DNA of 37,130 nucleotides, from contig JANYDS010000062.1 in NCBI GenBank assembly GCA_025363475.1, positions 1 to 37,130 on the forward strand, read 5' to 3'. A program made the translations under genes and the position numbers. Under the pieces are notes generated by a model. That model saw only the letters and a program-made list of their open reading frames with translations, was not told the DNA's origin and made no database searches. This DNA is from Terriglobia bacterium. GTDB lineage: Bacteria; Acidobacteriota; Terriglobia; Bryobacterales; Bryobacteraceae. Shown here piece after piece: positions 1 through 35,852 of this stretch (its first letter is position 1; every line of letters starts with the position of its first letter).

Positions 1-137
1 AGGGCAACGCAGGGATGCGACCCGAGCGCCGATTCAAGTCCGGAATGGATGGCGGTCTCACGACCGCCTCCTGTTAACCCGCCGCCACACCATCTAAGGA
101 CGGTCATTTTTTTGTCCAACCGATGGGGTCCACTTCA
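1..137. mobile_element. possible end of an insertion sequence (weak)
   Basis: No gene can be called here. The stretch contains a perfect 7-bp hairpin (51-57 with 62-68, loop TCAC). It ends in a segment that on the minus strand reads TGAAGTGGACCCC, then TTGGACA a few bases on, which resembles the terminal repeats of some IS3-type elements. Homology to the TonB-receptor fragment stops exactly at this point, after residues NWNI, and the TGA that ends the fragment lies in this segment. An insertion that truncated the receptor is therefore plausible. No transposase can be recognised in the short open frames that enter from the left edge. This is inference from resemblance only. Confidence 0.25.
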
Positions 138-1180
138 CTTCGCAATGTTCCAGTTTTGAATGTAAGGCGTGCGCAGATTCGGATCGAACGTGCTGAAAGT
201 CAGCTGTTTGCTCGCGAACGGATTGCTGTTCAGCGGAACCTGCTGAAGCGGCCTATTGGTCGGAGTTACAGGTACTGCCAGGTTCGAAAGATTCTGGTAG
301 CTCGCCGGGGTGTTGGAGAAGGTTTGTCCGAGACCCGGCGCGTAAACGGTGGGGAGCTGCGTTGGCATAGATGTTGAGGCGCTCATAACCTACGCCATAG
401 CCGACGCGGAGAACTGTCTTGTCTACGCCGAACCACGGCAGCGACCACGCGAGCCCGAGGCCCGGCGCGAAGTTGTTGTTATCGCCTTTGTACAGCTCGG
501 CATCAGGATGGGGTCCGTTGGGGCCTACCTGCTGCGGGGTGATAAGTTGCCCGTTCAGAACGCCGGGATGAAATTCATCAGCCAACGAAGTGCCTGAAAT
601 ACCAAACAGCGAGTAGCCGCCGCCAGCCGGAGCGATTGCGTTTCCGTGCGCTTCAAATGGAACCTGATAAAGCTCACAACGGACACCCAGATTCACTGTG
701 AGCTTCCGAGTGAACTTAATATCGTCCTTGAAAAAACCGGACCATTCGTGCTGCTTGATCAGGGCATAACGTTCCAGCCCAGGCAGACACGTTGCGCTTC
801 CGGAGGGAGCGTGCAACGTTTTCGACACCGAATTCACCGAACCGGAAAGATCGAGGAGCAGGTTTTGCGCGACGCCGAGATTGGCGCCGAGTGTGGGGGG
901 ATTGTTGGATGTCAGACCCTGAATCGGCGCAGTGCCGGCTCCGAGGAAAGCGCGCGGAACGACATTGGCGATGTCTTCGCCGGCGCAGGAAATCAGGCGC
1001 GCTTCGATGCCGCCTTTAAATGAGTGCTTCCCTTTGAGCCAGGTAACTGTATCGCCATATTGGTAATTCGGCGTGATGTTTTTGTAGCCGTCAAGCGCCC
1101 CGTCGATCGGCACCAGTGGAGTGACTGTCAGAGGGCTGATGAGGTCCCTGGTGATAGAGTGCAGTGTCTCCGCCAGTTCG
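135..1180 (-). pseudogene. TonB-dependent receptor (Oar/CarA-type) fragment, frameshifted
   Basis: The minus strand encodes an internal piece of a large outer-membrane TonB-dependent receptor of the type abundant in Acidobacteriota. Recognisable stretches are NITPNYQYGDTVTWLKGKHS, GGIEARLIS, GFFKDDIKFTRKLTVNLGVR and FAPGLGLAWS followed by VGYGVGYERLNIY. The frame is lost near position 360: NIYANA in one frame continues as QLPTVYAPGLGQTFSNTPA in another. It then ends at TGA (135-137) right after PYIQNWNI. The N-terminal carboxypeptidase-like and plug domains and the C-terminal strands are missing, so only about 345 of the roughly 1000-1200 codons usual for the family remain. The upstream end meets an unrelated plus-strand fragment at about 1120-1195. 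It is almost certainly non-functional. Confidence 0.8.
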
Positions 1181-1735
1181 TTTATCGTAGCTTCGTATGC
1201 GAACCGGACCTCGCCGGTTAAGCGTGGCAAATGGCTGCTCGAAAATATCCTGGGTGCTCCCCCGCCCCCGCCTTCTCCGAATGTGCCTGCACTCAAGGAG
1301 AATATGGCTGGAGAACAGGCTCATTCAGTTCGCGAGCGTCTGGAAGAACACCGCGCCAACCCGTCCTGCGCAAGCTGCCACAAGGCGATGGATCCCCTCA
1401 GCTTCGCTTTGGAAACATTCGATGCGATCGGATCCTGGCGGACTGCGGGCGAAGACGGCGCGACAATTGACGCGTCGGGTGAACTGGCCGATGGAACCCG
1501 GCTCAACGGACCCGCCAGCCTTCGGACTGCGCTGATGAAGCGGCCCGAAGACTTCGTAAGAACAGCGATTGACAAGCTTCTGACTTACACACTCGGGCGC
1601 GGGACTGAACCCTATGATGCGGCGGCTGTGCGCCGGATCGTGCGGCAATCGGCGGGCACTGGTTACAAATGGTCTTCAGTGATTCTCGCCATAGTGCAGA
1701 GCGCACCGTTCCAGATGCGCATTGCGGCGGATTAG
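1175..1735 (+). pseudogene. C-terminal fragment of a DUF1588/DUF1585 cytochrome-like protein
   Basis: The fragment carries only the last two domains of the DUF1587-1592-1588-1585 family. The DUF1588 part shows ANRTSPVKRGKWLLENILG, a proline-rich spacer and the haem-type motif CASCH (about 1365-1380). The DUF1585 part shows LLTYTLGRGTEPYD and ends near VILAIVQSAPF. It aligns well with the end of the intact paralog at 7449-9956 (NRTSPVLRGKFLLKNLLG, CASCHNVIDP, LMTYALGRGLEYYD). The N-terminal roughly 600 residues, including the first CxxCH and DUF1592, are missing; upstream sequence reads as receptor on the other strand. No start codon or ribosome-binding site is convincing. Its TAG stop overlaps the convergent stop of scoB. 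Confidence 0.8.
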
Positions 1736-2415
1736 GCTCCGCGCATTGTTGGCACGGCAGATTCGTCAGGAATGATCAAGTCCGCGCCTGTTGCGTTCCT
1801 CACGTCCGCGACGGTCAAACCCGGCGCGATCTCGGTTAGCACCAGCCCTTCAGGAAACACACGGATCACTGCCATTTCCGTCACGATGGTTTCCACCACA
1901 CGCAGCCCGGTGAGCGGCAGCGTGCAGGCTTTCAGAATCTTGGGCGCGCCAGATTTCGTAGTGTGCTCCATGGCAACGATCACGCGCCGCGCACTCGCCA
2001 CCAGATCCATGGCACCGCCCATACCCTTCACGACTTTGCCGGGAACCATCCAGTTCGCCAGGTTACCTTCCTGATCGACTTCCATCGCCCCGAGGACGCT
2101 CAGGTCCACATGCATTCCCCGGATCATCGCGAATGATTCGGCGCTCGAGAAATATGCGGAGCCGGGAATTTCAGTTACCGTCTCTTTGCCTGCGTTAATC
2201 AGGTCTGGATCTTCGGTACCGGCCAGCGGGTACGCGCCGACTCCCAGCATGCCATTTTCCGACTGCAGCACGACTTCGATTCCCGGCGGTACGTGGTTCG
2301 CAATCAAGGTGGGGATACCGATTCCCAGATTTACATAAAAGCCGTCGCGCAATTCCAGAGCGATGCGACGTGCGATTCGTTCGCGCTTTTCAGCGTCGGT
2401 GATCTGTGTTTTCAT
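1732..2415 (-). CDS. scoB: 3-oxoacid CoA-transferase, subunit B
   Basis: This is the beta subunit of a family I CoA-transferase (succinyl-CoA:3-ketoacid type). It moves CoA between succinyl-CoA and acetoacetate or another 3-oxoacid in the cytoplasm. The protein has 227 residues, the normal length. Diagnostic features are [14 protein letters not shown] near residue 30 and the catalytic glutamate in QSENGMLG (Glu53), which forms the glutamyl-CoA thioester intermediate. The start ATG overlaps the stop of scoA in an ATGA, so the two subunits are translationally coupled. Its TAA overlaps the tail of the convergent DUF1585 fragment. Substrate range cannot be read from the sequence; acetoacetate is the family default. 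Confidence 0.93.
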
Positions 2416-3113
2416 GACCGCTCCCCGCGAACCGTCCGGCGTTCAATTCGCTTCTCATAGTAGTTACCCTTGACAATACGCTTCACGTAGATGCCCGGCG
2501 TCACTACATGATCGGGGTCGATCATGCCCGGTTCCACCAGTTCCTCCACTTCCGCGATCGTGATCTTCGCGGCGGTAGCCATCACGGAATTGAAATTCTG
2601 CGCGGTCTTGCGATAGACAAGGTTCCCCATCCGGTCACCCTTCCAAGCCTTGATAAGCGCAAAATCAGCGGTGAGGGCGCGTTCGAGCAGGTAGCTCCGT
2701 CCGTCAAATTCCCGCGTTTCTTTTCCTTCGGCCACCAGCGTGCCGACGCCTGCGGGCGTGTAGAAAGCAGGAATGCCGGCACCTCCGGCGCGGATGCGTT
2801 CGGCGAGGGTACCCTGGGGTACCAGCGTCAGATCAATTTGTCCGGCGATGACCTGCGCCTCAAGAAACTTGTTTTCTCCCACGTAGCTGCCGACGTGGGA
2901 ACCGATCATGCCCGCTTCAAGCATGACGCCCATGCCGAAACCGTCGACGCCCATGTTGTTGCTGATCGTCTTCAGTCTCTTCACACCCTTGCGCACGAGT
3001 GCCGCAATCAGATTCTCGGGAATACCGCACAGGCCGAAACCTCCGAGCATGACGGTCGCGCCGTCGTTAATATCGGCAACAGCCTCATCAGCACTGCGAA
3101 CTTCTTTGTTCAC
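2412..3113 (-). CDS. scoA: 3-oxoacid CoA-transferase, subunit A
   Basis: This is the alpha subunit of the same CoA-transferase as scoB. The 233-residue protein shows the family signature [13 protein letters not shown] near residues 24-36, the NNMG stretch and [11 protein letters not shown]. The start is GTG at 3113, with AAAGGA about 8 bases upstream. Together with scoB it would form the heterodimer or heterotetramer needed for activity, letting the cell use or release ketone bodies or feed polyhydroxyalkanoate breakdown into central metabolism. The gene is first in a two-gene operon. It sits among decayed fragments but looks intact itself. Confidence 0.93.
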
Positions 3114-3185
3114 GCAATAGTCCTTTCCGCGGCATCAATTGTGCCCGCCGGATATCCTTCTATCTTCAGAGTTGAACCCGGGCCT

Positions 3186-3390
3186 TCAGGGTTCAACCCC
3201 GAAGGCAAGAAGCACGTTGCCAGGCCGTCCGCCGCAGGCACCATACCCGGAATTCACATATAGCATGTCCCCCACCACCACGGGACCGGGTCCGATGATG
3301 GAAGCGCCGTTGGCCGAAACCAGATTGACCATCTCAAAGCCGTGATTCGTATCGTACTCGTTCCAGGCCACGACGATGCCCCTGCAGTTG
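3186..3390 (-). pseudogene. C-terminal fragment of a PQQ-type beta-propeller protein
   Basis: About 65 codons resemble the last blade of secreted PQQ-binding-like beta-propeller proteins (polyvinyl-alcohol-dehydrogenase-like). The clearest stretch is ANGASIIGPGPVVVGDMLYV followed by NSGYGACGGRPGNVLLAFGV. Nothing before this blade survives. Upstream on the same strand the reading frame runs into sequence that reads as ankyrin repeat on the opposite strand. There is no start codon with a ribosome-binding site. It is a dead gene tail left by rearrangement; its parent is not in the window. Confidence 0.7.
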
Positions 3391-3395
3391 ACCGC

Positions 3396-3703
3396 ACTTG
3401 AAGCCGTCTCAAGGTCGCGCTCGCTTCTGGCAATGACATAAACGCTCAATGTGAACGGCCAAGCCGCTTTGCATGGAACTGCTTACATGGGTTCGACCAT
3501 GCTGATTCAGTATCTGGCGGCTCACGGAGCCAAACTCGACCTGACCAACAGGCTGGGCCAGAACCCGTACTACATTACCCAGGGTGTTTATCAGGCCGGA
3601 TCGTTCTTTGTGAGACAAGGAAGCAGGCGAACTGTTGCGCGGGCTCGGCGCGGATATTATGCTTGGCGCGGAAGTGAAACACACGGACCAGGTGGACTGC
3701 TAA
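3396..3703 (+). pseudogene. frameshifted ankyrin-repeat C-terminal fragment
   Basis: Three reading frames must be stitched to recover the protein. KVALASGNDINA (about 3403-3445) is followed after a shift by VNGQAALHGTAYMGSTMLIQ and HGAKLDLTNRLGQNPYYI. A one-base shift near 3616 then gives KEAGELLRGLGAD, ending at TAA 3701-3703. The stitched product matches the end of the intact ankyrin protein at 4465-6096 (QRGNDVNAKDIFGDTPLHGA, TPLTVANGV). It is therefore a decayed paralog of that gene's tail. It lies back to back with the PQQ-propeller fragment and has no promoter or start of its own. Confidence 0.75.
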
Positions 3704-3714
3704 CCTAAATGAGT

Positions 3715-4338
3715 TCAGGGCAATAGCGCCGCAAGTTGCGGCTGAGCGCCTGCTGGCAAGGGCGTGTGACTTGTGTTCATCGCCATGGAAAGCAGGACGT
3801 AGTAACCGAGCAAGCCCTCTGTATCCATCACGCCTTCTTCTCCGAAGCGCGCCACTGCACGGGTCCAGGTGCCGTCAGCTACCTGATGGGTGTTCAGCAG
3901 TTCCGTGCTGAAATCATAGATCGCGTTCTGGTCCTCACTCATTCCCCCAGGTCGTTTACCCAGGGCAATCGCGGCCACAGTGTTTTCATCCACTCCGGCG
4001 CGGATTGCCGCGGGCCGGTGTGAGTTCCAGAGATACTGCCGGGTCCATTGACGGGCCACAATCAGAATGGCGATTTCAGTGAGTTGATGGCTGATCGTCT
4101 TTTTCTCGCGTACGACGTAGTCGCCCAGAGACTTGGTTCGCACCATGACTTGCGGGCTGCGTGACAGCGCCACCAGCCAGCCAGACAATTCTCCGCCAGC
4201 GGGTGCAGTTACTTCGGCAGGCGCTTTCTTCTGCGCCACGGTCATTTTTTCGGCGGAAACCGGGAGCAGGCGGGCTTCGGCGCGACGTGCGGAGAAGGAG
4301 ATCAGCAGGAGAGAGTCGATGCGCCCGATGCGGTTCAT
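3715..4338 (-). CDS. carboxymuconolactone decarboxylase / AhpD-like family protein
   Basis: The protein belongs to the alpha-helical carboxymuconolactone-decarboxylase fold. The diagnostic block is EIAILIVARQWTRQYLWNSH near the middle, followed by the roughly 80-residue tail around IALGKRPGGMSEDQ, ATGVMDTEGLLGYYVLLSMA-like sequence and a short Pro/Leu-rich end. It has no CxxC pair, so it is not an AhpD-type peroxidase reductase. Many family members of this size in Acidobacteriota have unknown substrates. I chose ATG at 4338 (MNRIGRIDS), which begins a short hydrophobic segment that may be a signal; a GTG at 4377 would add 13 residues. It lies about 126 bp after the ankyrin gene, same strand, and could be read with it. 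Catalytic role unassigned. Confidence 0.75.
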   Translation of the reverse strand: MNRIGRIDSLLLISFSARRAEARLLPVSAEKMTVAQKKAPAEVTAPAGGELSGWLVALSRSPQVMVRTKSLGDYVVREKKTISHQLTEIAILIVARQWTRQYLWNSHRPAAIRAGVDENTVAAIALGKRPGGMSEDQNAIYDFSTELLNTHQVADGTWTRAVARFGEEGVMDTEGLLGYYVLLSMAMNTSHTPLPAGAQPQLAALLP

Positions 4339-19009: not shown

Positions 19010-19594
19010 GTGGAACCGTTCGCTCCGGTATACGACACCGCTCCACCAGCCCGGCGTTACCTTGAATCCAGACTCTGGCCGAATGGTCCGGTTTGTCCTC
19101 ACTGCGGAAGCGTCGGTCAGGCTGCGGAACTGCAGCCAACGGGTAATTCGCGCACCCACGCACGCGGCGGAACCTACCAGTGCAGAGCATGCCGCAAGCA
19201 GTTCTCCGTCACGGTTGGGACCATTTTTGAGGATTCGCGTATCCCACTCAACAAATGGTTGCAGGCTGTCTGCCTGATGTGTCTGACTCATGGCGGAGTC
19301 AGCGCAATAAGCCTGCAGAAGGAACTGGAACTGGGTTCGTATCGCTCCGCGAGGTTCATATTCCTGAAAATCCGCTGGGCTCTGCGCAAGAACTCACTGG
19401 CTGACCTGGGTTCTTCGAAAACAATCCAGATTTCGCTTGCGCCTGAACAGGCAATTATAGAGCTGTTTCTGGTGAAGCCCGATGCAGATACGCCACGCCC
19501 AGGGAAAGCGCGGCAGCGGTCGGTGTGGGCGGAGGTGAACGAGGGTATTGAACCGATCAATCAACCGGTAAAAGCCCGCATACTTGCTTTGTAA
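19010..19594 (+). CDS. IS1595-type zinc-ribbon/helix protein lacking the DDE domain
   Basis: The 194-residue product matches only the N-terminal DNA-binding part of IS1595-family transposases. It has ARRYLESRLWPNGPVCPHCG, then CRACRKQFSVTVGTIFEDS, then RIPLNKWLQAVCLM and SALQLQKEL-like SAISLQKELELGSYRSA with the helix ending in RWALRKN. Four Cys (CPHC and CRAC) are the zinc ligands. The DDE catalytic domain, which should start with DEKYIGG-like sequence, is absent; instead there is a 65-residue basic tail (PGKARQRSVWAEVNEGIEPI) of unknown kind. GTG 19010 follows a TAA at 19001. It is intact as an ORF, so either a truncated relic or a repurposed DNA-binding protein. Confidence 0.75.
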   Translation: MEPFAPVYDTAPPARRYLESRLWPNGPVCPHCGSVGQAAELQPTGNSRTHARGGTYQCRACRKQFSVTVGTIFEDSRIPLNKWLQAVCLMCLTHGGVSAISLQKELELGSYRSARFIFLKIRWALRKNSLADLGSSKTIQISLAPEQAIIELFLVKPDADTPRPGKARQRSVWAEVNEGIEPINQPVKARILAL

Positions 19595-24772: not shown

Positions 24773-25000
24773 TCAGGCGGTCACTCCAACCAACTTCCCG
24801 AGGTCGTTTATCGTTTCAGCAGACATGAACTGACGGGGCGAGAGCGACAGGCGAAAATGTTCGTCTGCGAACGCGATGAAACTCATCATCGCAAGAGAGT
24901 TCCAACTATAAAGTTCATCGAGTTTTTCCACGCCTGCCAAAGTACCGGACGGCAACTCAAGGATTTCGTTCATATGGCCCAGAAATTCCACTTTTGACAT
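24773..25000 (-). CDS. acyl carrier protein
   Basis: A 75-residue acidic four-helix acyl carrier protein. The phosphopantetheine serine is Ser35 in LYSWNSLAMMSFIAFADEHF; here the usual Asp of the DSL motif is Asn (NSL). The last helix reads ETINDLGKLVGV, as in other carrier proteins. It stands alone: no ketosynthase or adenylation gene lies nearby, unlike the fatty-acid acpP. Such stand-alone carriers are common near exopolysaccharide and exosortase loci. It ends in a convergent pair with the beta-helix gene and is divergent from the relic cyclase at 25063. Partner enzymes unknown. Confidence 0.88.
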   Translation of the reverse strand: MSKVEFLGHMNEILELPSGTLAGVEKLDELYSWNSLAMMSFIAFADEHFRLSLSPRQFMSAETINDLGKLVGVTA

Positions 25001-25062: not shown

Positions 25063-25278
25063 TTGGTGCGAAATTTAGAATCTGGAAGCAGTGCTACGAA
25101 ACCTTCGGTGTGGCGGAACATTTGTGTCCAGAGGTTGGTCGACCAGCAGAGGTTGGTCGACCAGATAGATACGCCGGGAAATGACACGCACCGTACCCTG
25201 TTCAACTACCGAAGAGTAGTCGGACAAGGCCTAAGGACCGGGCGCTTTCTTCAGTGGTTTGAAGGTCGGATTCACTAA
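25063..25278 (+). pseudogene. C-terminal remnant of an asparagine-synthetase-like (lasso cyclase) gene
   Basis: The frame ending in TAA directly before the HPr-kinase-like gene encodes HRTLFNYRRVVGQGLRTGRF then LQWFEGRIH. This lines up with the C-terminus of the intact cyclase at 30297-32264 (ERTLLYCNVIDQCIMGGRFL, RWFEENPS), including the preceding LVDQIDTPGN versus LKRVDQAGPD. Only about 50 codons survive; the amidotransferase-like and synthetase domains are gone and the upstream bases read as unrelated sequence. It also contains a perfect 18-bp duplication. The finding shows that the plus-strand kinase and PqqD genes once followed a cyclase gene, as they do on the minus strand. Confidence 0.72.
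25129..25164 (+). repeat. perfect 18-bp tandem duplication
   Basis: The unit CAGAGGTTGGTCGACCAG occurs twice in a row (25129-25146 and 25147-25164) without a mismatch. It keeps frame and repeats six residues (QRLVDQ) in the cyclase remnant. Each unit contains the palindrome TGGTCGACCA. Confidence 0.95.
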
Positions 25279-26205
25279 ATGCAGCGGTGGTGCTACCAAT
25301 ACCACGGACTCAACGTGGAATCAGATATTGAGATCCCGGAACTGGATCTCTTCGCAGCGCGAGAACCCTTTCCGGAAGCGGATGTGCTGATTACTCTGGA
25401 AAAGTCGCCAGCAAGCCTGATTTCCGACGACAGGCTTGCCATCTCTCCCCGTCTGCCCGTGGTTCATGACCGCGAGTTCGGTCTTCGGATTCCTCAGGCG
25501 GCGGATTTTCGGGTGCAGGCTGGCCGTCGGATTTTGATTTCTCCCTCCGCTAGTGCTGATTTCAAGGCGATCAGGCAATATCTTTTGGGCTCGGTGTGGG
25601 CAGCTGTCTGTTACCAGCGAGGCATATTTGTGGTACATGCCAGTGCGGTTCGCGACGGCAACGCCGCAGTCATGTTCTGTGGCGCATCCGGGCACGGAAA
25701 GTCCACCACCGCTGCATTTCTCTCTGAACGAGGGTTTCCAGTGCTAAATGACGACCTGAGTTGTTGTAGTTTCCCTGCGGACGGTGGTCCTCAGATTTTT
25801 CCTTCCAGCCCCCGTATCAAGTTATGGGCAGACGCACTTCAGGCCTTGGGCCTGCCCCACAATGACGCTGAGGCGTGCCGGGTACGAACAGGTAAATTCC
25901 GGCTTCGTACCCACAGATCCACCGATCATAAGCCACTACCGGTTGCAGCCGTATATCTCCTTGAATGGGGAGAACCAGGTATTCGGAGGCTCTCCGGTCT
26001 GAACGCCCTCAGACAATTTCTTCACGCCGCAACTTACCGCGGACGGGTGATTGAAGAACTGGGTGAACTGAGTAATTATTCCAGGCACTGCGTTCACTTT
26101 CTGGAGCAGGTGCCTGTATTCCAGTTCACCCGGCACAGGTCTGTTTCCGAAGCCGCAGAAGCTACAGAACTCCTTACGGGGCACATTTCCGGCCTTCGTT
26201 TATAA
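25279..26205 (+). CDS. HPr-kinase-like protein, relic locus copy
   Basis: A 308-residue protein related to the C-terminal kinase domain of HPr kinase/phosphorylase (HprK), in the form found next to PqqD and asparagine-synthetase-like genes. The P-loop is CGASGHGKSTTAAFLSERGF (residues 134-153; Lys141, Ser142), preceded by GIFVVHASAV and followed by the acidic VLNDDLSCC. It lacks the N-terminal HprK domain and no HPr gene is near, so sugar-uptake control is unlikely. In lasso-peptide clusters such kinases (for example PadeK of paeninodin) phosphorylate the peptide's C-terminal Ser. The ATG follows the TAA of the cyclase remnant with no gap. The gene looks intact, but no precursor is visible beside it. 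About as divergent from the minus-strand copy as a distinct paralog. Confidence 0.8.
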   Translation: MQRWCYQYHGLNVESDIEIPELDLFAAREPFPEADVLITLEKSPASLISDDRLAISPRLPVVHDREFGLRIPQAADFRVQAGRRILISPSASADFKAIRQYLLGSVWAAVCYQRGIFVVHASAVRDGNAAVMFCGASGHGKSTTAAFLSERGFPVLNDDLSCCSFPADGGPQIFPSSPRIKLWADALQALGLPHNDAEACRVRTGKFRLRTHRSTDHKPLPVAAVYLLEWGEPGIRRLSGLNALRQFLHAATYRGRVIEELGELSNYSRHCVHFLEQVPVFQFTRHRSVSEAAEATELLTGHISGLRL

Positions 26206-26217
26206 TAGAGACCAGGT

Positions 26218-26502
26218 ATGGCAAACCGTATTGGGCGTGATAGTGTCGCGGTTCGAGCTTCCAACCTGCCGCTGATTCGGATTCAGGACGATGTAATAGC
26301 ACTGGACGAGCATGCAGGGGTTTATTATGCAATGAATTCGCCCGGGGCCAGGATTTGGGAGTTGATTGACCTCCCCGTTACCGTGGCTGTAGTGTGCGAA
26401 GTGATCTCCAGAGAATTCGCGGTCTCTGACGACACATGTTTTAGTGATGTGGTCGAGTTTTTGATCGAGATGAGGGCCAGAGGATTGATCACTCTATGCT
26501 GA
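26218..26502 (+). CDS. PqqD-like peptide-recognition protein, relic locus copy
   Basis: The 94-residue protein is a PqqD-family domain, the fold of the RiPP recognition element that binds leader peptides (B1 in lasso clusters). Typical are DDVIALDEHAGVYYAMNSPG, then RIWELIDLPVTVAVVCEVIS with EFLIEMRARGLI at the end. It lies 12 bases after the kinase gene, same strand, and is clearly co-transcribed. The downstream part expected in a lasso locus (B2 protease) is missing; its TGA overlaps an ATG (26496, ATGCTGA) of a 50-codon frame with no recognisable similarity. The protein may be an evolutionary leftover, or may act with the minus-strand locus. Confidence 0.85.
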   Translation: MANRIGRDSVAVRASNLPLIRIQDDVIALDEHAGVYYAMNSPGARIWELIDLPVTVAVVCEVISREFAVSDDTCFSDVVEFLIEMRARGLITLC

Positions 26503-26634
26503 CATTCAATTTTCATCGTTCCGGCAGGTACTGGAACCAGAAACTACAAGCGAAATGTTCTTTTTTCGCCGTACGGTTTGAAGCGCGGTATACTTTCGCT
26601 AGAGCGCACTTGCAGCGTTCCGGCTCGGAGGGTT

Positions 26635-27741
26635 ATGAAGACGTTTAAACATATTGCAATCGGGGTAGTCTTGGCTAGCACATGCGCGTTCGCCGGGCAA
26701 ATACAGATCGGTGAATACGCGGGGAATGTGATCAGTGGTGCCAACAGTGGTTTGACGGGGAACTACGTCACTTCTGCAGGAGGCGTTCAGTGCGCCGGTT
26801 TCGTGGCCCAAGGCAATACCTGCGTCGCAACCGGCACGGCCGGTGTGAGCGGATCTTTGGGTGCAGCATTGAAAAGAGGTTACGATACAACCTTGTTTTC
26901 AGGCGTAACACAGGGCGTAACGGCTCCGTCCCCTTATACGGGCTATTCGAAGGCTACAGCTGCCCCGGCAGGCAGCACCATGCCGGATGGCACAAATAAC
27001 GTGACATTCGCGATGATCTCGGACGGCGTTACTGGGCCGAACAGCAACAATGCGCTTACAATGAACACTCCGACCACGATCACGGTACCGATTGGTATCT
27101 TTGGCGTGAGCGACGTCTGGGCGATGCTCAACAACGTCTATGGAGAAGTGGGAGCCAATGACACATCGTTGACCTTCAATTTTGCCAATACCTCGAATGC
27201 GACAACGAATTTGACGGTAGTGACAGTCGATTTGATTAACAGTTCCAGTGCCCAGACAGCTGGCGGCCAGTCTTCCGCGAGTGGCGATGGGCAGATCCGC
27301 TCTGCCGTGGACTGCACCATAGTCGGCAGTTCCACATGCGACCAAGTCCCCCGCGGGCCGCTCAAAGACAGTAGCACCCTGGCTACCTCGATTAGTGTTA
27401 ACGGCGGGACAGCCACTGCCGGCTCGGTTGCCTTTTTAAGCCGACAGATTTATACGACAGCCTATAACACCACGAGCAACGCCCGCTATAGTGGTTCAAG
27501 TGGCAATGCGGTATTAGATGATCAGAACTTCTCGTTCGGATCCACCTATCAGAACATGTATCTCGTCAGCATGTCGGTTTCAGAGAAGGTCGGCTTGGCT
27601 GCTGCCAACAAAAGCGATACCGCACTTTCGGCGATAACAGTGAATACCTTTAACTCCGCGGTTCCTGAACCTTCTACATGGATTCTGATGCTGGCTGGAG
27701 TTGGTGCCATCATGGCGACGAAACGCAGGAAGTCGATCTAA
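26635..27741 (+). CDS. PEP-CTERM surface protein
   Basis: A 368-residue secreted protein. It has a signal peptide (TFKHIAIGVVLASTCAFA), a Ser/Thr/Gly/Asn-rich body without recognised domain, and a C-terminal PEP-CTERM sorting tag: VPEPSTWILMLAGVGAIMAT followed by KRRKS. The tag is recognised and cut by exosortase, coupling the protein to the envelope or an extracellular polymer; no exosortase gene is in the window. ATG 26635 has GGAGGG immediately upstream, slightly close; an upstream in-frame start at 26578 lacks any support. It is enclosed by the two kinase/PqqD loci and ends in a clear terminator. Confidence 0.88.
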   Translation: MKTFKHIAIGVVLASTCAFAGQIQIGEYAGNVISGANSGLTGNYVTSAGGVQCAGFVAQGNTCVATGTAGVSGSLGAALKRGYDTTLFSGVTQGVTAPSPYTGYSKATAAPAGSTMPDGTNNVTFAMISDGVTGPNSNNALTMNTPTTITVPIGIFGVSDVWAMLNNVYGEVGANDTSLTFNFANTSNATTNLTVVTVDLINSSSAQTAGGQSSASGDGQIRSAVDCTIVGSSTCDQVPRGPLKDSSTLATSISVNGGTATAGSVAFLSRQIYTTAYNTTSNARYSGSSGNAVLDDQNFSFGSTYQNMYLVSMSVSEKVGLAAANKSDTALSAITVNTFNSAVPEPSTWILMLAGVGAIMATKRRKSI

Positions 27742-27770: not shown

Positions 27771-27803
27771 AAGCCACAACTCTTAGGAGTTGTGGCTTTT
27801 TTA
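27771..27803 (+). terminator. rho-independent terminator of the PEP-CTERM gene
   Basis: AAGCCACAACTC pairs perfectly with GAGTTGTGGCTT around a TTAG loop and is followed by TTTTTATT. The stem ends at the stop of the convergent PqqD-like gene. The other strand has no U-run after the stem. Confidence 0.92.
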
Positions 27804-28118
27804 TTCCGCAGCCGCGCGTTCCTGCGCAGAGCTGATTGGCACCAGGCGAATGAGCGATTTATTCAGCATGTCGTCCAGGAAGTCGATGACTTCCGTCTCG
27901 CACTCCGAGGGATCTACATCATAAGCCGCCTGCATTTCAAGACACAAATCCTCTACTGTTCGTATTCCATCCAGCAGCATCCAAATCCGCCCGGCAGTGT
28001 CGTCCAAGCCGTAGTAGTCGCCACTGCGAGGATCCGCCAGTACAACAGCCTGGTCGACCCGTTGGAGAAACAAATTATCTTGCTGGCAAACAATTGTGTT
28101 CAGACTGATTTTGTTCAA
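27801..28118 (-). CDS. PqqD-like peptide-recognition protein
   Basis: A 105-residue PqqD-family protein: VDQAVVLADPRSGDYYGLDD, then RIWMLLDGIRTVEDLCLEMQ, then VIDFLDDMLNKSLIRLV. This is the winged-helix fold that in lasso clusters (B1 protein) binds the leader peptide and hands it to the protease and cyclase. Last gene of the minus-strand locus. The start is TTG 28118, six bases after the sulfotransferase stop, with GGAG inside the end of that gene. A conserved Tyr/Trp-Pro leader motif is present in the small peptide encoded upstream, so the pairing is sensible. Clearly related to, but distinct from, the PqqD copy at 26218. Confidence 0.87.
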   Translation of the reverse strand: MNKISLNTIVCQQDNLFLQRVDQAVVLADPRSGDYYGLDDTAGRIWMLLDGIRTVEDLCLEMQAAYDVDPSECETEVIDFLDDMLNKSLIRLVPISSAQERAAAE

Positions 28119-28124
28119 CTTGAT

Positions 28125-28967
28125 TTATGGCTCCAGGTAACCGAGTCGTCGCATCATAGCACCATGATCGCGCACCACCCGGTGAATCTGTTCTCCAGTA
28201 AGCACTGTTCGCCAGCGGTCACGAACGCCACTTCGAAAGAATAATTGGGCTTTGGGGGAGCGCTCTCGAAAGCCCTCCTGTTCCTCCTGCTGACGCAGCA
28301 CGTTAAAAGCGGAAAGCGAAACGGCGCGACTGACCCGGTCCGCGTCCTCGGCAAGACCCAGGAACTTAACAGCTTTCATGAACGTTTCACAGGGATACTC
28401 ATGCAAATCCTCATATCGGACCACATGGACGGGTATCTGGGACTGGTCGATCCAGCTCATAACATGATTACTCCACGACAGAAGTCTTTGCCTGAGATGA
28501 GAGGCCAGTCGGCTGGGATTTGAAGCCAATGCTGTGTCATCGGAGTTCATTGAGTCGATGGTCCGATCCAAACTCCAGCCCATATGATCGGCGAGTGAGA
28601 TGCTCACGTCGAGCGGATTGCGAACCAGGTAGACGACCCCAAGGGATGCATCTGACGGGATAAGACTCTCAGACGGGGCAGCAGAATGGTAAGCATCGTG
28701 AATCTTCACGAAAAGAGTTTCTGAAGCCCGGTGCGCAATTTCGCGGTAAACGGGCGGTCGAAGCCTGTCCATTTCTTCAGCCGACAGGTCAGCCGACTCG
28801 ATTGACAACGCAGAATCGAAGACCGATCTGGACGAAGAAATCGCCGACGTGTTCAATGCATTGATACTGGCCGGGGTAACTGTGTTGCGTGAGAAGTTGG
28901 TAAGGAAAACACGGAACCAAGTGTTTCCCGACTTGGGGTATGACGCCAGCCAGGCGATTTTGCTCAT
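28125..28967 (-). CDS. PAPS-dependent sulfotransferase
   Basis: The 280-residue protein is a sulfotransferase of the cytosolic Sulfotransfer_1 type, which transfers sulfate from 3'-phosphoadenylyl sulfate to an O or N acceptor. The 5'-phosphosulfate loop is at the N-terminus: WLASYPKSGNTWFRVFLTN (residues 6-24). The 3'-phosphate site follows in VVYLVRNPLDVSISLADHMG, and a C-terminal helix in FRSGVRDRWRTVLTGEQIHR completes the fold. Its ATG overlaps the kinase stop (ATGA), so the two are co-translated. Within a putative lasso locus it may sulfate the peptide; small-molecule or sugar acceptors are also possible. No other sulfation gene is nearby. Confidence 0.87.
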   Translation of the reverse strand: MSKIAWLASYPKSGNTWFRVFLTNFSRNTVTPASINALNTSAISSSRSVFDSALSIESADLSAEEMDRLRPPVYREIAHRASETLFVKIHDAYHSAAPSESLIPSDASLGVVYLVRNPLDVSISLADHMGWSLDRTIDSMNSDDTALASNPSRLASHLRQRLLSWSNHVMSWIDQSQIPVHVVRYEDLHEYPCETFMKAVKFLGLAEDADRVSRAVSLSAFNVLRQQEEQEGFRERSPKAQLFFRSGVRDRWRTVLTGEQIHRVVRDHGAMMRRLGYLEP

Positions 28968-29872
28968 GCGGCAAAATCCTTCTCCAGCAGGTCAGCCACC
29001 TGAGAAGGACTCACGCGCTCCGGCCGCGACAACAGAGCGGCGCTGACAGTCGCGCCCAGTGCCGTCATCTGTGCAAAATATCGTTCTCTAAGATTCATAC
29101 TGCGCGCGATGTTTGGATGATAACCTGCGTTAGCGAGCGCACGTATTTTAAAAAGACCGGTAAGCGGTGTAACGTCCAAATCAGCGTGAAAGGAACTCTC
29201 GATCACATAGATCCTGTGAATGGGCGCTGGTGTTCGGTAAAACGAGTCTCGGAGAGGAAGGCTGAATTTTTGAATCCCGGGTCTTACGCGTTTCAATTGC
29301 TGCCCAGTGAGATCGAGAGCTTCCACGGCATCCTCCCACAGCATTAATGAAGGAAAGGCCGGGAGCACACTGAAAGATTCTCCCACGGTTACCGCGCAGA
29401 TTTCATCCGAAAGAACCGGGTATCCCCGCAAGTGCAGCGCTGCCGCGAGCGTGGACTTGCCGGAGCCGGAGGCACCAGCGAGAATAACTGCGCCCTTTGG
29501 GGTGAGTACTGCGCTCGCGTGAAGCGGCAACAAATCCCTCTGATAGAGCAGTGCCGCAAGCGGAGATCCCAGCAGGAAAAGGCGAACAGTCGCAGCGTGG
29601 GCTGAGACTGCGGGTTCAATGTCGATTTGGTTGCCGCCTGTGACCAAGTACCGACCGATGTTGTCAAGCTTCAGGAGGAATGACCCAGGACGAGCTTGGA
29701 AAAGCACGCCCGAGAAGAGTGGTTGCTCCAGAGCAGAGGGAACAGTTCCGACGCGGAAGATGACTTCGGGCGGTTCCCCTGCAGGAATAGCCCCTAAGTC
29801 AAGGTCAGAAAGAATCTTAATTCCAAAAGCCGAGCAGTAATAGGGTGCGGCATCCAACACTGCCAGCGCCAA
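28964..29872 (-). CDS. HPr-kinase-like protein, putative RiPP kinase
   Basis: A 302-residue protein with the HprK kinase core only. The P-loop is GASGSGKSTLAAALHLRGYP (residues 133-152, Lys139), preceded by LLPLHASAV (His118) and followed by VLSDEICAV. It is the same family as the kinase at 25279 but differs in most positions. The N-terminus begins at TTG 29872 without a good ribosome-binding site, four bases after the stop of the small peptide gene; coupling to it is likely. In paeninodin-type lasso clusters, such kinases phosphorylate the C-terminal Ser of the precursor. The peptide here ends in Ser, which fits. Phosphate donor and target are inferred. Confidence 0.8.
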   Translation of the reverse strand: MALAVLDAAPYYCSAFGIKILSDLDLGAIPAGEPPEVIFRVGTVPSALEQPLFSGVLFQARPGSFLLKLDNIGRYLVTGGNQIDIEPAVSAHAATVRLFLLGSPLAALLYQRDLLPLHASAVLTPKGAVILAGASGSGKSTLAAALHLRGYPVLSDEICAVTVGESFSVLPAFPSLMLWEDAVEALDLTGQQLKRVRPGIQKFSLPLRDSFYRTPAPIHRIYVIESSFHADLDVTPLTGLFKIRALANAGYHPNIARSMNLRERYFAQMTALGATVSAALLSRPERVSPSQVADLLEKDFAA

Positions 29873-29876
29873 TCAA

Positions 29877-30026
29877 TTAAGAGGTGTGGGACTGCGAGGC
29901 GTCCGCAGCCCCGCTAGTGGTATGTGTTAAAGCGTCCTTCAGCGATAAACACTCAACGATCGGCTTTACCCAGATGTGACGCTCGGGCGGTTGGCTTGCC
30001 TCTGCTATTTTGTTAATTTCAATCAC
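29877..30026 (-). CDS. putative lasso-type RiPP precursor peptide, GTG start
   Basis: This is a 49-codon gene starting with GTG 30026, with GAGGAG 10-15 bases upstream. The leader has Trp19, Pro22 and Val24 in IWVKPIVECLSL, matching the lasso leader pattern Y-x-x-P-x-L, with Thr34 exactly 15 residues after Trp19, where the conserved penultimate Thr of the leader usually lies. Cleavage after His35 would leave the 14-residue core TTSGAADASQSHTS. Asp42 is the only acidic residue there, at core position 7, and the only possible ring-closing side chain. The core ends in Ser, as in kinase-modified paeninodin. It sits between the cyclase and the kinase genes. An N-terminal Thr and a seven-residue ring would be unusual. 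The role is inferred from context and motif. Confidence 0.68.
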   Translation of the reverse strand: MIEINKIAEASQPPERHIWVKPIVECLSLKDALTHTTSGAADASQSHTS

Positions 30027-30296
30027 GACAATGTCTCCTCAGCGATTTAAAGTCTAAACGAGAACCAACTAACAGGCTCGAACTATCTCAGTATGACGCA
30101 TCAGGTTTAAAAAATCCAGCAAGCCGGTTCAGGGTGATTGCGACCCAACCACAGGGCGAATTACATAGAGCAAGTACCGTGCCATATACCTTGGCTATGC
30201 TGACATCGCAGTCTCATCCAAGGGCTCTGAAACAGGGCCCAATCCGGAATCGAAAATGCCGACTTGACCGCCAGTCCGCGACACACATATAGTTCA
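30027..30296 (-). other. 270-bp spacer between cyclase and precursor genes
   Basis: No gene is seen here. The length is large for a gap inside an operon, so the precursor gene may have its own promoter, but I find no convincing -10/-35 pair and no clear terminator. The only functional element visible is the GAGGAG ribosome-binding site just upstream of GTG 30026. Confidence 0.5.
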
Positions 30297-32264
30297 TCAG
30301 GATGGGTTTTCTTCAAACCACCGCAGGAAACGGCCTCCCATGATGCACTGATCGATCACATTGCAATAGAGAAGTGTTCTCTCGCGAGAATCGGGTCCGG
30401 CCTGATCAACTCGTTTCAGCAGCCCTGCCACACGATTCAGATCGAGCATCCTGCTGGCACGCGGGCTGGAAGCCAGGCGGGCCAACTCGTCCTCCAGTCG
30501 GGGCCGCGTCTTCTTGAGTGTGTCAAACCAGTCGGCCGCCTGAATGCCGCGGCCAGAATTGCTAAGCACCTCAGCCGGCAGTCTGTCTTTCATCGCTCGA
30601 CGAATTAATCGCCGGCTGATGCCGTCTTTCAGGCTCTGGTCTTCAGGCAGGGAGAGACAAAACTCAAACAGACGGACATCGCCAAGTACGTGTCGGGTCT
30701 CAACGCCAAACATTCCCTTGTAACCGTGCGCAATGGCACCGCCAAATCCGTTTCTGGCCGTGAGCTCATACCGCATCCGCCAAAAATCCGGCGTCGGACG
30801 CTGGTAAAAACTGTGGTGCCGTCCAAGTGCCCGCTCAGCCACTCGCTGGTGCGCGGCGAACGCCGGATGGATAGCAGAATACGCAGACCAAGGGGGCCGC
30901 GCTGAGATATTAATTTTCCCGCTGTGAACAGTCCTCTGAATCGTCAACCAAACATTTTCGGGTAGTATCGGCATCAGCCCTTTGTGCAACAGGATACGGA
31001 GGGCTGACCGCCCGGGGCTGTTTCGCGATAGTGCGCGAGCCTCGCGGAACGCCCGTTTCCACTGGCCGGAACGCAGAAGGTGCGGCAGCAAATCGTGCCC
31101 ATCCCAGCTGACTGTCAAATTGCCAGGTAATCCGGTAAGTATGACGCCAACTTTTCTTTCGGAGGCTTCTCGAAGGATCGATTCCCACCAGATTCTGTTG
31201 GAGGCATTGCGAAAAGGAGTTTCTGAGGCATTAAGGAACGCGTCGATATCGTCAAGGCAGAACTGACCCGTCCCGCGAATCAGATGCAGATTGATGTTTG
31301 GGTAGCGGCTGGCCATCGCCTGAACCAAACTCGTCTCGTCTGCATAATACCCGTGTTCCATCGGTTCATGGAAGTTCTCCGGTGGCACTGAAGTGAAAGT
31401 CTCAAGACGCTTGCCCTGACTCCCCAAAATTTGTGCGGCGACAGCGGCCACCGCCGTGGAATCCAGTCCGCCACTCATCATCACACCGACTTTTGAGGCA
31501 CTTCGGGTCTGATCGCGTATGACGCGGGTGAAGAGCGCTGTGAATGCTTCCACGTAATCCTCATCGCGCGAAAAATGAGTTCGCTTGTCCGGGTCGAACA
31601 CCCAAAAAGGTTTGACTTCAAACCGTCCGTTTCGAATCACAATGAAATGGCCACCCTCCAGGCGCTTTACGCCTGCAAACAGGCTGCTAAAGGGCTCTGG
31701 GGGCACAATCGCGAGAAAGTCGGCGAAGCTTTGTTCATCAATTTCGCGAGGAATGAAGGGCAGAGCGAAGAGGGCACGAGGGGCGGATGCAAAAGCTATG
31801 CGTTTCGCCGAGGCATGGAAGAAGAGTGGGCGTTCTCCCATAGGCGAACAGGCGATCAGCGTTTGACGGTTCGCTGCGTCATGCAGGGCAAACGCATAGG
31901 CTCCTGTGAGATAGGCCGGACAATCAGTGCCCCATCTGTCCCAGGCACGCAGGATGAAAGCGGAATCTGGCATCGATTTCGATTCTGAGGCGGGAATGCC
32001 CAGCGTTTCCGCCAGTTCAAGGCGGTTATCGATCCTCGCATCTGAAACCAGGACGTGTCGTTTCCCGGAATCGAATGCAGGTTGCGTGTCGAACAAATCT
32101 TCCGGGGTCACCCGCATCAACCGGTGGCCAAGCCCCGTGTTTTCGCGGATCCAGGTGCCGCCGCCGTGTCGTCCGTGGAAGCCCGGGGTCAAATCCATTG
32201 GAGCCAGATCACCCTGTGAGACCGGGCAACCGTCGAAGTTAACCAGGCCGAATATGGCACTCAT
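30297..32264 (-). CDS. asparagine-synthetase-like lasso-type cyclase
   Basis: A 655-residue protein with an N-terminal amidotransferase-like domain (MSAIFGLVNFDG) and a C-terminal ATP-dependent synthetase domain. The pyrophosphatase P-loop is VGVMMSGGLDSTAVAAVA (SGGLDS at 264-269). Position 2 is Ser, not the Cys needed for glutamine hydrolysis, so the enzyme cannot use glutamine. This is the pattern of McjC-type lasso cyclases, which adenylate an Asp/Glu side chain and join it to the peptide N-terminus. ATG 32264 is chosen because it gives the family N-terminus; a frame from 32351 adds 29 unmatched residues. First gene of the minus-strand locus, divergent from polA by 215 bp. Cell-wall or O-antigen amidation is an alternative, made less likely by the precursor-like gene. 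Confidence 0.82.
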   Translation of the reverse strand: MSAIFGLVNFDGCPVSQGDLAPMDLTPGFHGRHGGGTWIRENTGLGHRLMRVTPEDLFDTQPAFDSGKRHVLVSDARIDNRLELAETLGIPASESKSMPDSAFILRAWDRWGTDCPAYLTGAYAFALHDAANRQTLIACSPMGERPLFFHASAKRIAFASAPRALFALPFIPREIDEQSFADFLAIVPPEPFSSLFAGVKRLEGGHFIVIRNGRFEVKPFWVFDPDKRTHFSRDEDYVEAFTALFTRVIRDQTRSASKVGVMMSGGLDSTAVAAVAAQILGSQGKRLETFTSVPPENFHEPMEHGYYADETSLVQAMASRYPNINLHLIRGTGQFCLDDIDAFLNASETPFRNASNRIWWESILREASERKVGVILTGLPGNLTVSWDGHDLLPHLLRSGQWKRAFREARALSRNSPGRSALRILLHKGLMPILPENVWLTIQRTVHSGKINISARPPWSAYSAIHPAFAAHQRVAERALGRHHSFYQRPTPDFWRMRYELTARNGFGGAIAHGYKGMFGVETRHVLGDVRLFEFCLSLPEDQSLKDGISRRLIRRAMKDRLPAEVLSNSGRGIQAADWFDTLKKTRPRLEDELARLASSPRASRMLDLNRVAGLLKRVDQAGPDSRERTLLYCNVIDQCIMGGRFLRWFEENPS

Positions 32265-35057: not shown

Positions 35058-35852
35058 TTAAGCCTTAAACTTCTTGCGGAACAAGCCGAGGCCGAGGAGA
35101 GCAGAACCCATCAGGATCATGCTGGCCGGTTCCGGTGTGCCTGTCGCCTGGCTGGTGTGATAGTCGTACGCTACGGTATAAGCACCGTTCGTCGTGGTGC
35201 CCTGATGAGCCGTGATGTTGCCGCCGCCGCCGAAGAATGTCGAGCCGGTCGAAGTTGCATAATCGAAAGTGAATGTTCCGGTCGTATCGTAAGCGGTGAG
35301 TGCCGCTCCAGTGGAGTGAGTTACTGAGGTCGCAAAATTGAGCGGATTGTTGAGGCCCAGCAAGCCAATCAAGCTGGGATCAACAGTTGGAGACTGTGGC
35401 CCGCCCAGATAGACGAGAGTCGTACCTTTGCCGCCCGCAATTGTTTGGTTGGAAGTACCGTCGCCCACGGAGTACATAGTGATGGGAGACCCTATGGTAG
35501 GAAGGCCAGTTTTCAGCGCGGTCTTGTCAGCGGTGGGTGCCGTTCCGCCCAGGCTGAAGCCGGCGGTTGTAACAAACGAGAAATTCTGGCTGCTGACGTC
35601 GTTATTTTCAAAGGTCAGCGACGTTACGGTTTCATTTACGGAAAAGGAAATCGTCACTGAATCGAGGATGTCCAAACCCGTAATGCCGCCCACGTTGCGG
35701 AAGTAGTTGAACGTCTGGGTGGTGCCCGCATGTGTTACGTCAGTAGGCTGAACGGGAATGGTTCCTGTCTGCGTGATCGTGGTAGCGGAAGCTAGCCCCG
35801 CACCTAATACCACCAGCGCTACCGAGTTCATCATTCTCCGAGTTAAAGTCAT
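35058..35852 (-). CDS. choice-of-anchor E-type PEP-CTERM protein
   Basis: A 264-residue exported protein. It has a signal peptide (RRMMNSVALVVLGAGLASA), a beta-sandwich body beginning TTITQTGTIPVQPTDVTHA with DSVTISFSVNETVTSLTFEN, and the PEP-CTERM tag TPEPASMILMGSALLGLG ending in FRKKFKA. The body resembles the domain known as choice-of-anchor E, whose members carry different C-terminal anchors. The start is taken at 35852; ATG 35834 or 35831, just after GGAGA, would shorten the signal and cannot be excluded. A paralog without this tag is encoded divergently at 36249. It presumably sits on the outer surface or in the matrix. Confidence 0.85.
   Translation of the reverse strand: MTLTRRMMNSVALVVLGAGLASATTITQTGTIPVQPTDVTHAGTTQTFNYFRNVGGITGLDILDSVTISFSVNETVTSLTFENNDVSSQNFSFVTTAGFSLGGTAPTADKTALKTGLPTIGSPITMYSVGDGTSNQTIAGGKGTTLVYLGGPQSPTVDPSLIGLLGLNNPLNFATSVTHSTGAALTAYDTTGTFTFDYATSTGSTFFGGGGNITAHQGTTTNGAYTVAYDYHTSQATGTPEPASMILMGSALLGLGLFRKKFKA

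What the first reader, a model, noticed from the sequence alone, without database searches (positions are those of the whole stretch)
29877..30026. Unannotated small gene: a lasso-type precursor peptide next to a cyclase, kinase, sulfotransferase and PqqD
The 49-codon GTG-start gene has a good ribosome-binding site and lies between the cyclase and kinase genes, with a gap of only four bases to the kinase start. Its leader has Trp19-x-x-Pro22-x-Val24 and Thr34 exactly 15 residues after Trp19, the conserved lasso leader spacing. The core has a single Asp as the only ring-forming residue and ends in Ser. A core starting at residue 34, 35 or 36 gives a 9-, 8- or 7-residue ring; Thr34 at the penultimate leader position predicts 7, an uncommon size, with an N-terminal Thr, also uncommon.
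Basis: partly seen in the sequence, partly recalled or inferred. Interest (0 to 1): 0.85.

Follow-up and report, generated by a model that had tools for sequence, protein, structure and literature searches.

The report
Lasso-type precursor with kinase and sulfotransferase
A short unannotated gene in an acidobacterium very probably encodes the raw peptide for a small ring-closed (lasso-type) natural product, made beside a peptide kinase and a sulfotransferase whose joint job remains unclear.

Summary
The 49-codon ORF is real and very probably a RiPP precursor. Homologues lie immediately 5' of the same kinase-sulfotransferase-PqqD genes in two congeneric genomes; their leader blocks differ mostly at third codon positions.

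The sulfotransferase leads to a large group: in 76 of the 80 best related loci an HPrK-like kinase sits directly 5' of it, with cyclase in 60, PqqD in 65 and B2 in 45 by tblastn or 54 by a local profile. At least 33 of the 80 hold a precursor of similar build: [WY]xxPx leader, acidic residue at core position 7-9, usually C-terminal Ser.

The penultimate leader Thr of this group is 13-14 residues after the aromatic, not 15, so Thr34 is best read as core residue 1, Ala32 as -2, and the ring as 9-membered (Thr34-Asp42).

The window lacks the B2 peptidase; the genome has one on another contig. Kinase plus sulfotransferase in lasso clusters was remarked on in 2014, so this is a variant of a known kind. 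Cleavage, ring closure, threading, phosphorylation and sulfation are all untested.

The parts
29877..30026 (-). precursor peptide gene (49 aa, GTG start, stop included)
29928..30026 (-). leader (residues 1-33 in the favoured register; Trp19 at 29970-29972, Ala32 at -2)
   Evidence: positional comparison of 41 peptides; cut site inferred
29880..29927 (-). core, residues 34-49; predicted ring Thr34-Asp42 (Asp42 codon 29901-29903); C-terminal Ser49 (29880-29882) predicted kinase site
   Evidence: inferred
30035..30040 (-). ribosome-binding site GAGGAG, 8 nt before GTG
30297..32264 (-). lasso-type (asparagine-synthetase-like) macrolactam cyclase, 655 aa
   Evidence: NF033535 359 bits (cut-off 525); PF00733
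28964..29872 (-). HPrK-like peptide kinase K2 (P-loop GASGSGKS, then SDE where DD is usual)
28125..28967 (-). sulfotransferase (Sulfotransfer_1); overlaps kinase by 4 nt
27801..28118 (-). PqqD/B1-like leader-binding protein (RRE)
25279..26205 (+). second HPrK-like kinase K1 (DD motif), 40% identical to the K1 of the G002 cluster
26218..26502 (+). second PqqD/B1-like protein, 43% identical to the G002 copy
25147..25266 (+). probable remnant of the 3' end of a second cyclase, directly before K1 as in G002
   Evidence: tblastn with G002 cyclase, 45% over 40 aa, E 2e-7 in a 1.3-kb search; with the window cyclase 32% over 57 aa, E 3e-5

Best explanation
The ORF is the precursor of a lasso-type (macrolactam) RiPP made by the operon cyclase - precursor - kinase - sulfotransferase - PqqD. 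Shown by sequence: the conserved leader, the conserved gene set, a single acidic residue in the core, and the C-terminal Ser. Inferred steps: PqqD (B1) binds the WxKPxVExLSL leader. The kinase phosphorylates the linear precursor, most likely on C-terminal Ser49, as paeninodin-type kinases do. The sulfotransferase adds sulfate from PAPS to a Ser or Thr of the core (the core has no Tyr). A B2 peptidase supplied in trans, most likely from the single B2 gene on contig C42, cuts between Leu33 and Thr34. The cyclase then joins the Thr34 amine to Asp42 to give a 9-membered ring with a 7-residue tail. Whether the tail is threaded is not known.
For: Conserved precursor at the same place in G005 and G002. 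A lasso cyclase model is the best match of the cyclase and lasso PqqD models of the PqqD; the PqqD's best solved chains are lasso B1 proteins 9x90, TbiB1 and TfuB1 (the last two recalled as lasso proteins). Kinase directly 5' of the sulfotransferase in 76 of 80 best-related loci. Precursors of similar build in at least 33 of the 80 loci, 26 of them at E <= 0.01. Acidic residue at core 7-9 in 39 of 41, against 11.8 on average and at most 22 in 5,000 shuffles. C-terminal Ser in 32 of 41. Order cyclase-precursor-kinase-sulfotransferase also in L066, L084, L099 and L111. All 12 genomes whose sulfotransferase locus, as held, showed no B2 by tblastn or profile have a B2 elsewhere. HPrK-like kinases phosphorylate the C-terminal Ser of linear lasso precursors (PMC8498205, passages seen, citing Zhu 2016).
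Against: A precursor profile trained without the three acidobacterial peptides does not recover the window peptide at E <= 10; it finds G005 at 0.054 and G002 at 0.081. The window peptide matches no NCBIfam or Pfam model. No B2 in the window, although 54 of 80 related loci have one nearby and the close relative G002 has one in its cluster. Ala rather than Thr at -2. Under the same register G002 would have a 7-membered ring, and the cores of G005 and G002 are only 13 residues. The kinase has DE where 66 of 70 sulfotransferase-adjacent motif strings have DD. Nine of 41 precursors do not end in Ser although their loci hold the pair, so the kinase site may differ. No evidence beyond gene linkage that the sulfotransferase acts on the peptide.
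Confidence: 0.7

Rival explanations
1. One reading: Thr34 is the -2 leader Thr, the core is residues 36-49 (14 residues) with a 7-membered ring.
For: Thr34 is Trp19+15, the spacing of the YxxPxL class (PMC10368454, passages) and of this genome's C42 precursor. Seven is within the 7-9 range given there.
Against: In the 41 tabulated peptides Thr is at +13 or +14 in 38, and only the window and G005 have it at +15 alone. Applied to G005 (Asp at +22) and G002 (Asp at +21), a core from +17 would put Asp at positions 6 and 5, outside that range.
Confidence: 0.12
2. The locus is decaying: B2 has been lost, a second cyclase is already a remnant, and the precursor is a leftover of a working ancestor like the G002 cluster.
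For: No B2 in the window while G002 has one in its cluster; cyclase remnant before K1; kinase DE motif, though G002 and G005 share it; rearranged gene order compared with G002.
Against: Cyclase, precursor, kinase, sulfotransferase and PqqD frames are all open and tightly packed; leader differences favour third positions; one B2 over the Pfam cut-off elsewhere in the genome, a layout also seen in 12 other genomes.
Confidence: 0.18
3. A macrolactam or linear RiPP that is not a threaded lasso: the cyclase closes a branched ring, or the product is only phosphorylated and sulfated.
For: Very short cores in G005 and G002 (13 residues); cyclase below the NF033535 cut-off; no threading evidence.
Against: The acidic residue is at position 7-9 in 39 of 41 group cores, as lasso macrolactam rings need; B1-like PqqD; B2 near 54 of 80 loci.
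Confidence: 0.25

Closest known systems
Paeninodin-type phosphorylated lasso peptides (PadeA/PadeK; NCBIfam NF033524)
   Same: Split B1/B2, HPrK-like kinase, C-terminal Ser, macrolactam to an acidic residue (PMC8498205, passages); 4 of 41 group precursors match NF033524 weakly (best E 0.0005).
   Different: The window peptide itself does not match NF033524; a sulfotransferase overlaps the kinase gene; Ala at -2; B2 not in the cluster.
Lasso clusters with HPr kinase and sulfotransferase noted in anaerobes (PMC4289311, Letzel 2014) and a sulfotransferase in Firmicutes clusters (Zhu 2016, as told in PMC8498205)
   Same: The same extra enzymes beside lasso genes; role called unclear in PMC4289311 (passages seen).
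   Different: The passages I saw give no product and no shared precursor type; here the pair is shown as a 5'-3' unit in 76 of 80 loci with a common precursor build.
Bradymonas BsfA/BsfK (PMC10368454, passages seen)
   Same: Phosphorylated lasso precursor with a non-Thr residue at -2; the paper reports Ile/Val(-2) in Acidobacteriaceae and cites predictions of Ala(-2).
   Different: BsfK acts on Ser3, the precursor ends in Asp, and that cluster has a nucleotidyltransferase; no sulfotransferase is named in its gene list.
Glycopeptide sulfotransferases Teg12, Teg14, StaL
   Same: Teg12 and Teg14 are the best solved matches of the sulfotransferase (E down to 1.8e-21), StaL close behind.
   Different: They sulfate a non-ribosomal glycopeptide (recalled); here the neighbour genes point to a ribosomal peptide whose core has no Tyr.

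Membership tests
lasso peptide precursor | short precursor with aromatic-x-x-Pro-x-hydrophobic leader beside B1 and cyclase | tested here: met
lasso peptide precursor | Asp/Glu at core position 7-9 for the macrolactam | tested here: met
   Asp42 = position 9 in the favoured register (7 or 8 in others)
lasso peptide precursor | Thr at leader position -2 (usual, not obligatory: Ile(-2) shown to work in PMC10368454) | tested here: not met
   Ala32 in the favoured register; Ala in G002 and G005 too
lasso biosynthetic cluster | lasso cyclase | tested here: inconclusive
   NF033535 is the best model (359 bits against 148 for asparagine synthase) but below its cut-off of 525
lasso biosynthetic cluster | B1 (PqqD-like RRE) | tested here: met
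   PF05402 over its cut-off; best NCBIfam model is a lasso PqqD, below its cut-off (57.5 of 80); best solved chain a lasso PqqD
lasso biosynthetic cluster | B2 leader peptidase in the cluster | tested here: not met
   none in window; one over the cut-off in the genome, on contig C42
lasso peptide | threaded tail | not testable with these tools
   needs MS/NMR
paeninodin family NF033524 | match to the curated model | tested here: not met
   window peptide has no match; 4 of 41 group peptides match weakly
paeninodin-type kinase substrate | C-terminal Ser | tested here: met
   Ser49; Ser in G002, G005 and 32 of 41 tabulated precursors in all
sulfated RiPP | sulfate on the peptide | not testable with these tools
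   only gene linkage

The most novel reading that the evidence does not exclude
The kinase and sulfotransferase form one conserved tailoring unit that makes phosphorylated and sulfated lasso peptides, with sulfate on Ser or Thr rather than Tyr (25 of 41 tabulated cores, including all three acidobacterial ones, have no Tyr). In the boldest form the sulfotransferase acts on the same C-terminal Ser or on its phosphate. This would be a widespread class of doubly charged lasso peptides, some of them matured by a B2 encoded elsewhere in the genome.
Probability: 0.35. Interest if true: 0.7.

Novelty: new variant of a known kind. Interest (0 to 1): 0.5.

Why it matters
A kinase plus a sulfotransferase in lasso clusters was noted in 2014 with an unclear role (PMC4289311). 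The comparison here gives a defined precursor type, a predicted cut site and ring, and exact masses, so the question can be tested directly. It also suggests that some precursor clusters rely on a B2 peptidase encoded elsewhere in the genome, which genome-mining rules that require a nearby B2 would miss.

Tried and rejected
Chance ORF: rejected because of conservation in G005 and G002 and third-position bias. A B2 remnant after PqqD1 (ORF 26496-26648): two B2 queries against the window give nothing better than E 1.3, and a local B2 profile finds nothing in the window. A missing cyclase in the G002 cluster: my own error (the greedy ORF choice hid it behind an antisense frame), corrected. DE as a mark of sulfotransferase-linked kinases: rejected, DD in 66 of 70 distinct motif strings. 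Tyrosine sulfation: rejected for this peptide, no Tyr in the core.

Not followed: one search listed 42 matches, the window's own included; I opened five of their loci (L010, L018, L023, L027, L037), and only L010 (G005) and L023 (G002) sit in this gene context. L054 and L055 were fetched and not analysed. Two papers on paeninodin were not held, so its leader spacing is recalled only and not used as evidence.

The 80 are not independent (L069/L072 share a contig, L065/L109 a genome, L122/L123 look near-identical, L066/L104 one MAG, L129/L139 one chromosome), and many are cut by contig ends, so gene counts are lower bounds. The 41 peptides are 38 from the profile search (31 at E <= 0.01, 7 at E 0.019 to 0.31) plus the three acidobacterial ones. 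Dropped: everything above E 0.4, among it one likely member (L079:5910-6167, E 0.8). Further precursor-like ORFs seen by eye (for example in L074, L075, L080, L114, L126, L134, L137, L139) are not in the table. The gathering motif fixes Pro at +3 and the iterated profile favours Thr at +13, so those two columns are biased upward. One search's output was cut in the middle.

Full report
Observation. On the same strand lie a lasso-type cyclase (30297-32264), an HPrK-like kinase (28964-29872), a sulfotransferase (28125-28967, overlapping the kinase by four bases) and a PqqD-like protein (27801-28118). The window is a whole contig of the assembly (G000:C84, 37,130 bases), and the cluster is not cut by a contig end.

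Conservation. A search of 61 genomes with the 49-mer gave, besides itself, one convincing match, G005 (E 1.6e-5, 47% over residues 7-40); a weak match in G002 (E 0.3) proved to lie in the same context. All three have precursor, kinase, sulfotransferase, PqqD in that order; the gap from precursor to kinase is 4 bases in the window and 58 in each relative. Identity to the window is 51-52% for the sulfotransferases, 40-43% for the kinases and 41% for the peptides. With a profile of the three peptides, only these 3 of 257 genomes of the order match strongly; a fourth (E 0.007) lies inside a 536-aa frame. The sulfotransferase profile finds 14 of 257 genomes at E <= 1e-40, of which only these three exceed 500 bits; the next is 273. 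In the 15-codon leader block second positions hardly change (0-2 differences) while third positions do (9-10).

The wider group. By record titles they come from many groups: Acidobacteria, Bacteroidetes, Chloroflexi, Desulfobacteraceae, Firmicutes, Proteobacteria, Planctomycetes, Verrucomicrobia, Cyanobacteria, Armatimonadetes and others (my reading of the titles). tblastn with the local genes put a kinase directly 5' of the sulfotransferase in 76 of 80, with cyclase in 60, PqqD in 65 and B2 in 45; 35 of 80 have all five. A local B2 profile raises B2 to 54 of 80. Many loci hold a short ORF with the [WY]xxP leader. A profile trained without the three acidobacterial peptides found 31 peptides at E <= 0.01, in 26 of the 80 loci, among 13,117 ORFs, and none in the same ORFs shuffled. 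The same profile did not find the window peptide at E <= 10, and found G005 and G002 only at 0.054 and 0.081. The window peptide is therefore tied to the group by its gene context and through its two close relatives, not by direct similarity.

Register. I lined up 41 peptides (38 from the group plus the three) on the leader aromatic. Pro at +3 is in all 41, but it is part of the search motif. Thr is at +13 in 28 and +14 in 10. Acidic residues peak at +22 (15) and +23 (21). Counting the core from two residues after that Thr (from +15 in the three without it), 39 of 41 cores have Asp/Glu at position 7-9, against 11.8 on average and at most 22 in 5,000 shuffles. In the window, +13 is Ala32, +15 is Thr34 and +23 is Asp42: a 16-residue core with a 9-membered ring. 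G005 gives a core starting T-G with Asp at 8, like both L106 cores and the L104 core, which have Thr(-2). G002 would have Asp at 7. A non-Thr residue at -2 is unusual but has precedent: PMC10368454 (passages read) shows Ile(-2) working, reports Ile/Val(-2) in Acidobacteriaceae, and cites predictions of Ala(-2).

Enzymes. The PqqD's best solved chains are a lasso PqqD (9x90), TbiB1 and TfuB1. The sulfotransferase's are the glycopeptide sulfotransferases Teg12 and Teg14, then cytosolic SULTs and StaL. The kinase has the P-loop and a DE pair where 66 of 70 distinct sulfotransferase-adjacent motif strings have DD; G002 and G005 have DE too. PMC8498205 (passages read) states that HPrK-like kinases phosphorylate the hydroxyl of the C-terminal Ser on linear lasso precursors. 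Ser is the last residue in 32 of 41 precursors, including all three here. Nine of 41 end otherwise although their loci hold the pair. No Tyr occurs in 25 of 41 cores, including all three here, so if the sulfotransferase acts on those peptides it must use Ser, Thr or another group.

Missing B2. The window has no B2. The genome has one over the Pfam cut-off, on contig C42, next to a second PqqD, cyclase and kinase with a separate precursor-like peptide of the +15 class; a second match, on C41, is far below the cut-off (E 0.145). I searched the genomes of 18 group loci in which tblastn saw no B2: 16 of 17 genomes have one over the cut-off. A later local profile showed that 5 of the 18 loci (L078, L101, L103, L110, L113) do hold a B2. 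For the other 13 loci, in 12 genomes, none is in the held stretch and all 12 genomes have one elsewhere. How far away was not checked for most: in G273 it lies about 10 kb from the sulfotransferase, in G277 several hundred kb from it, if contig C1 is numbered like the record. A B2 acting in trans is thus possible, not proved, and 54 of 80 loci do have a B2 nearby. G002 has an intact order cyclase, K1, PqqD1, B2, precursor, K2, sulfotransferase, PqqD2. The window has K1 and PqqD1 on the other strand, preceded by a probable remnant of a second cyclase and followed by a PEP-CTERM gene rather than B2; that protein is homologous to one beside the G002 cluster (36%). So the region is a rearranged relative of the G002 locus, and partial decay is a real alternative.

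Known or new. Searches of the paper library led to two statements of a sulfotransferase in lasso clusters: PMC4289311 (2014, passages: HPr kinase and sulfotransferase in some anaerobe clusters, role unclear) and PMC8498205 (2021, passages: sulfotransferase gene at the start of some Firmicutes clusters, citing Zhu 2016). I saw no report of a sulfated lasso peptide in those listings; the library lacks most subscription journals, so this is weak evidence of absence. PMC5067487 and PMC7533575 were seen in passages only. NCBIfam has a paeninodin-family model that 4 of 41 group peptides match weakly, and Pfam only one stray match. I therefore call this a variant of a known kind, and do not file it as a proven lasso peptide, because the usual Thr(-2) and a local B2 were tested and not met, the cyclase stays below its model's cut-off, and threading cannot be tested here.

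Noticed in passing
25147-25266 (+): Probable remnant of the C-terminal end of a second cyclase directly before kinase K1, as in the G002 cluster order.
   Followed up: partly
G000 contig C42, L053:4998-9056: A second lasso-type cluster in the same genome: B2, PqqD, cyclase, kinase, and between cyclase and kinase a precursor-like peptide with Tyr-x-x-Pro and Thr at +15, ending in Ala.
   Followed up: partly
26635-27741 (+) and 35058-35852 (-): PEP-CTERM-type proteins by their C-termini (no model search made); the first is 36% identical to one beside the G002 cluster.
   Followed up: partly
24773-25000 (-): Small acyl-carrier-like protein (PF00550 exactly at its cut-off) beside the cluster.
   Followed up: no
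L079:5298-6427: Four tandem precursor-like ORFs in front of one cyclase in a record labelled Armatimonadetes (three in the table); L087, L089 and L106 also have more than one.
   Followed up: partly
L140 (G005:C948) 1-3757: A further sulfotransferase-kinase-B2-PqqD set in G005, with a Tyr-containing precursor-like peptide near 2101(-).
   Followed up: no
19010-19594 (+): Frame that looks like the zinc-ribbon start of an insertion-sequence transposase (recalled resemblance, no search made).
   Followed up: no
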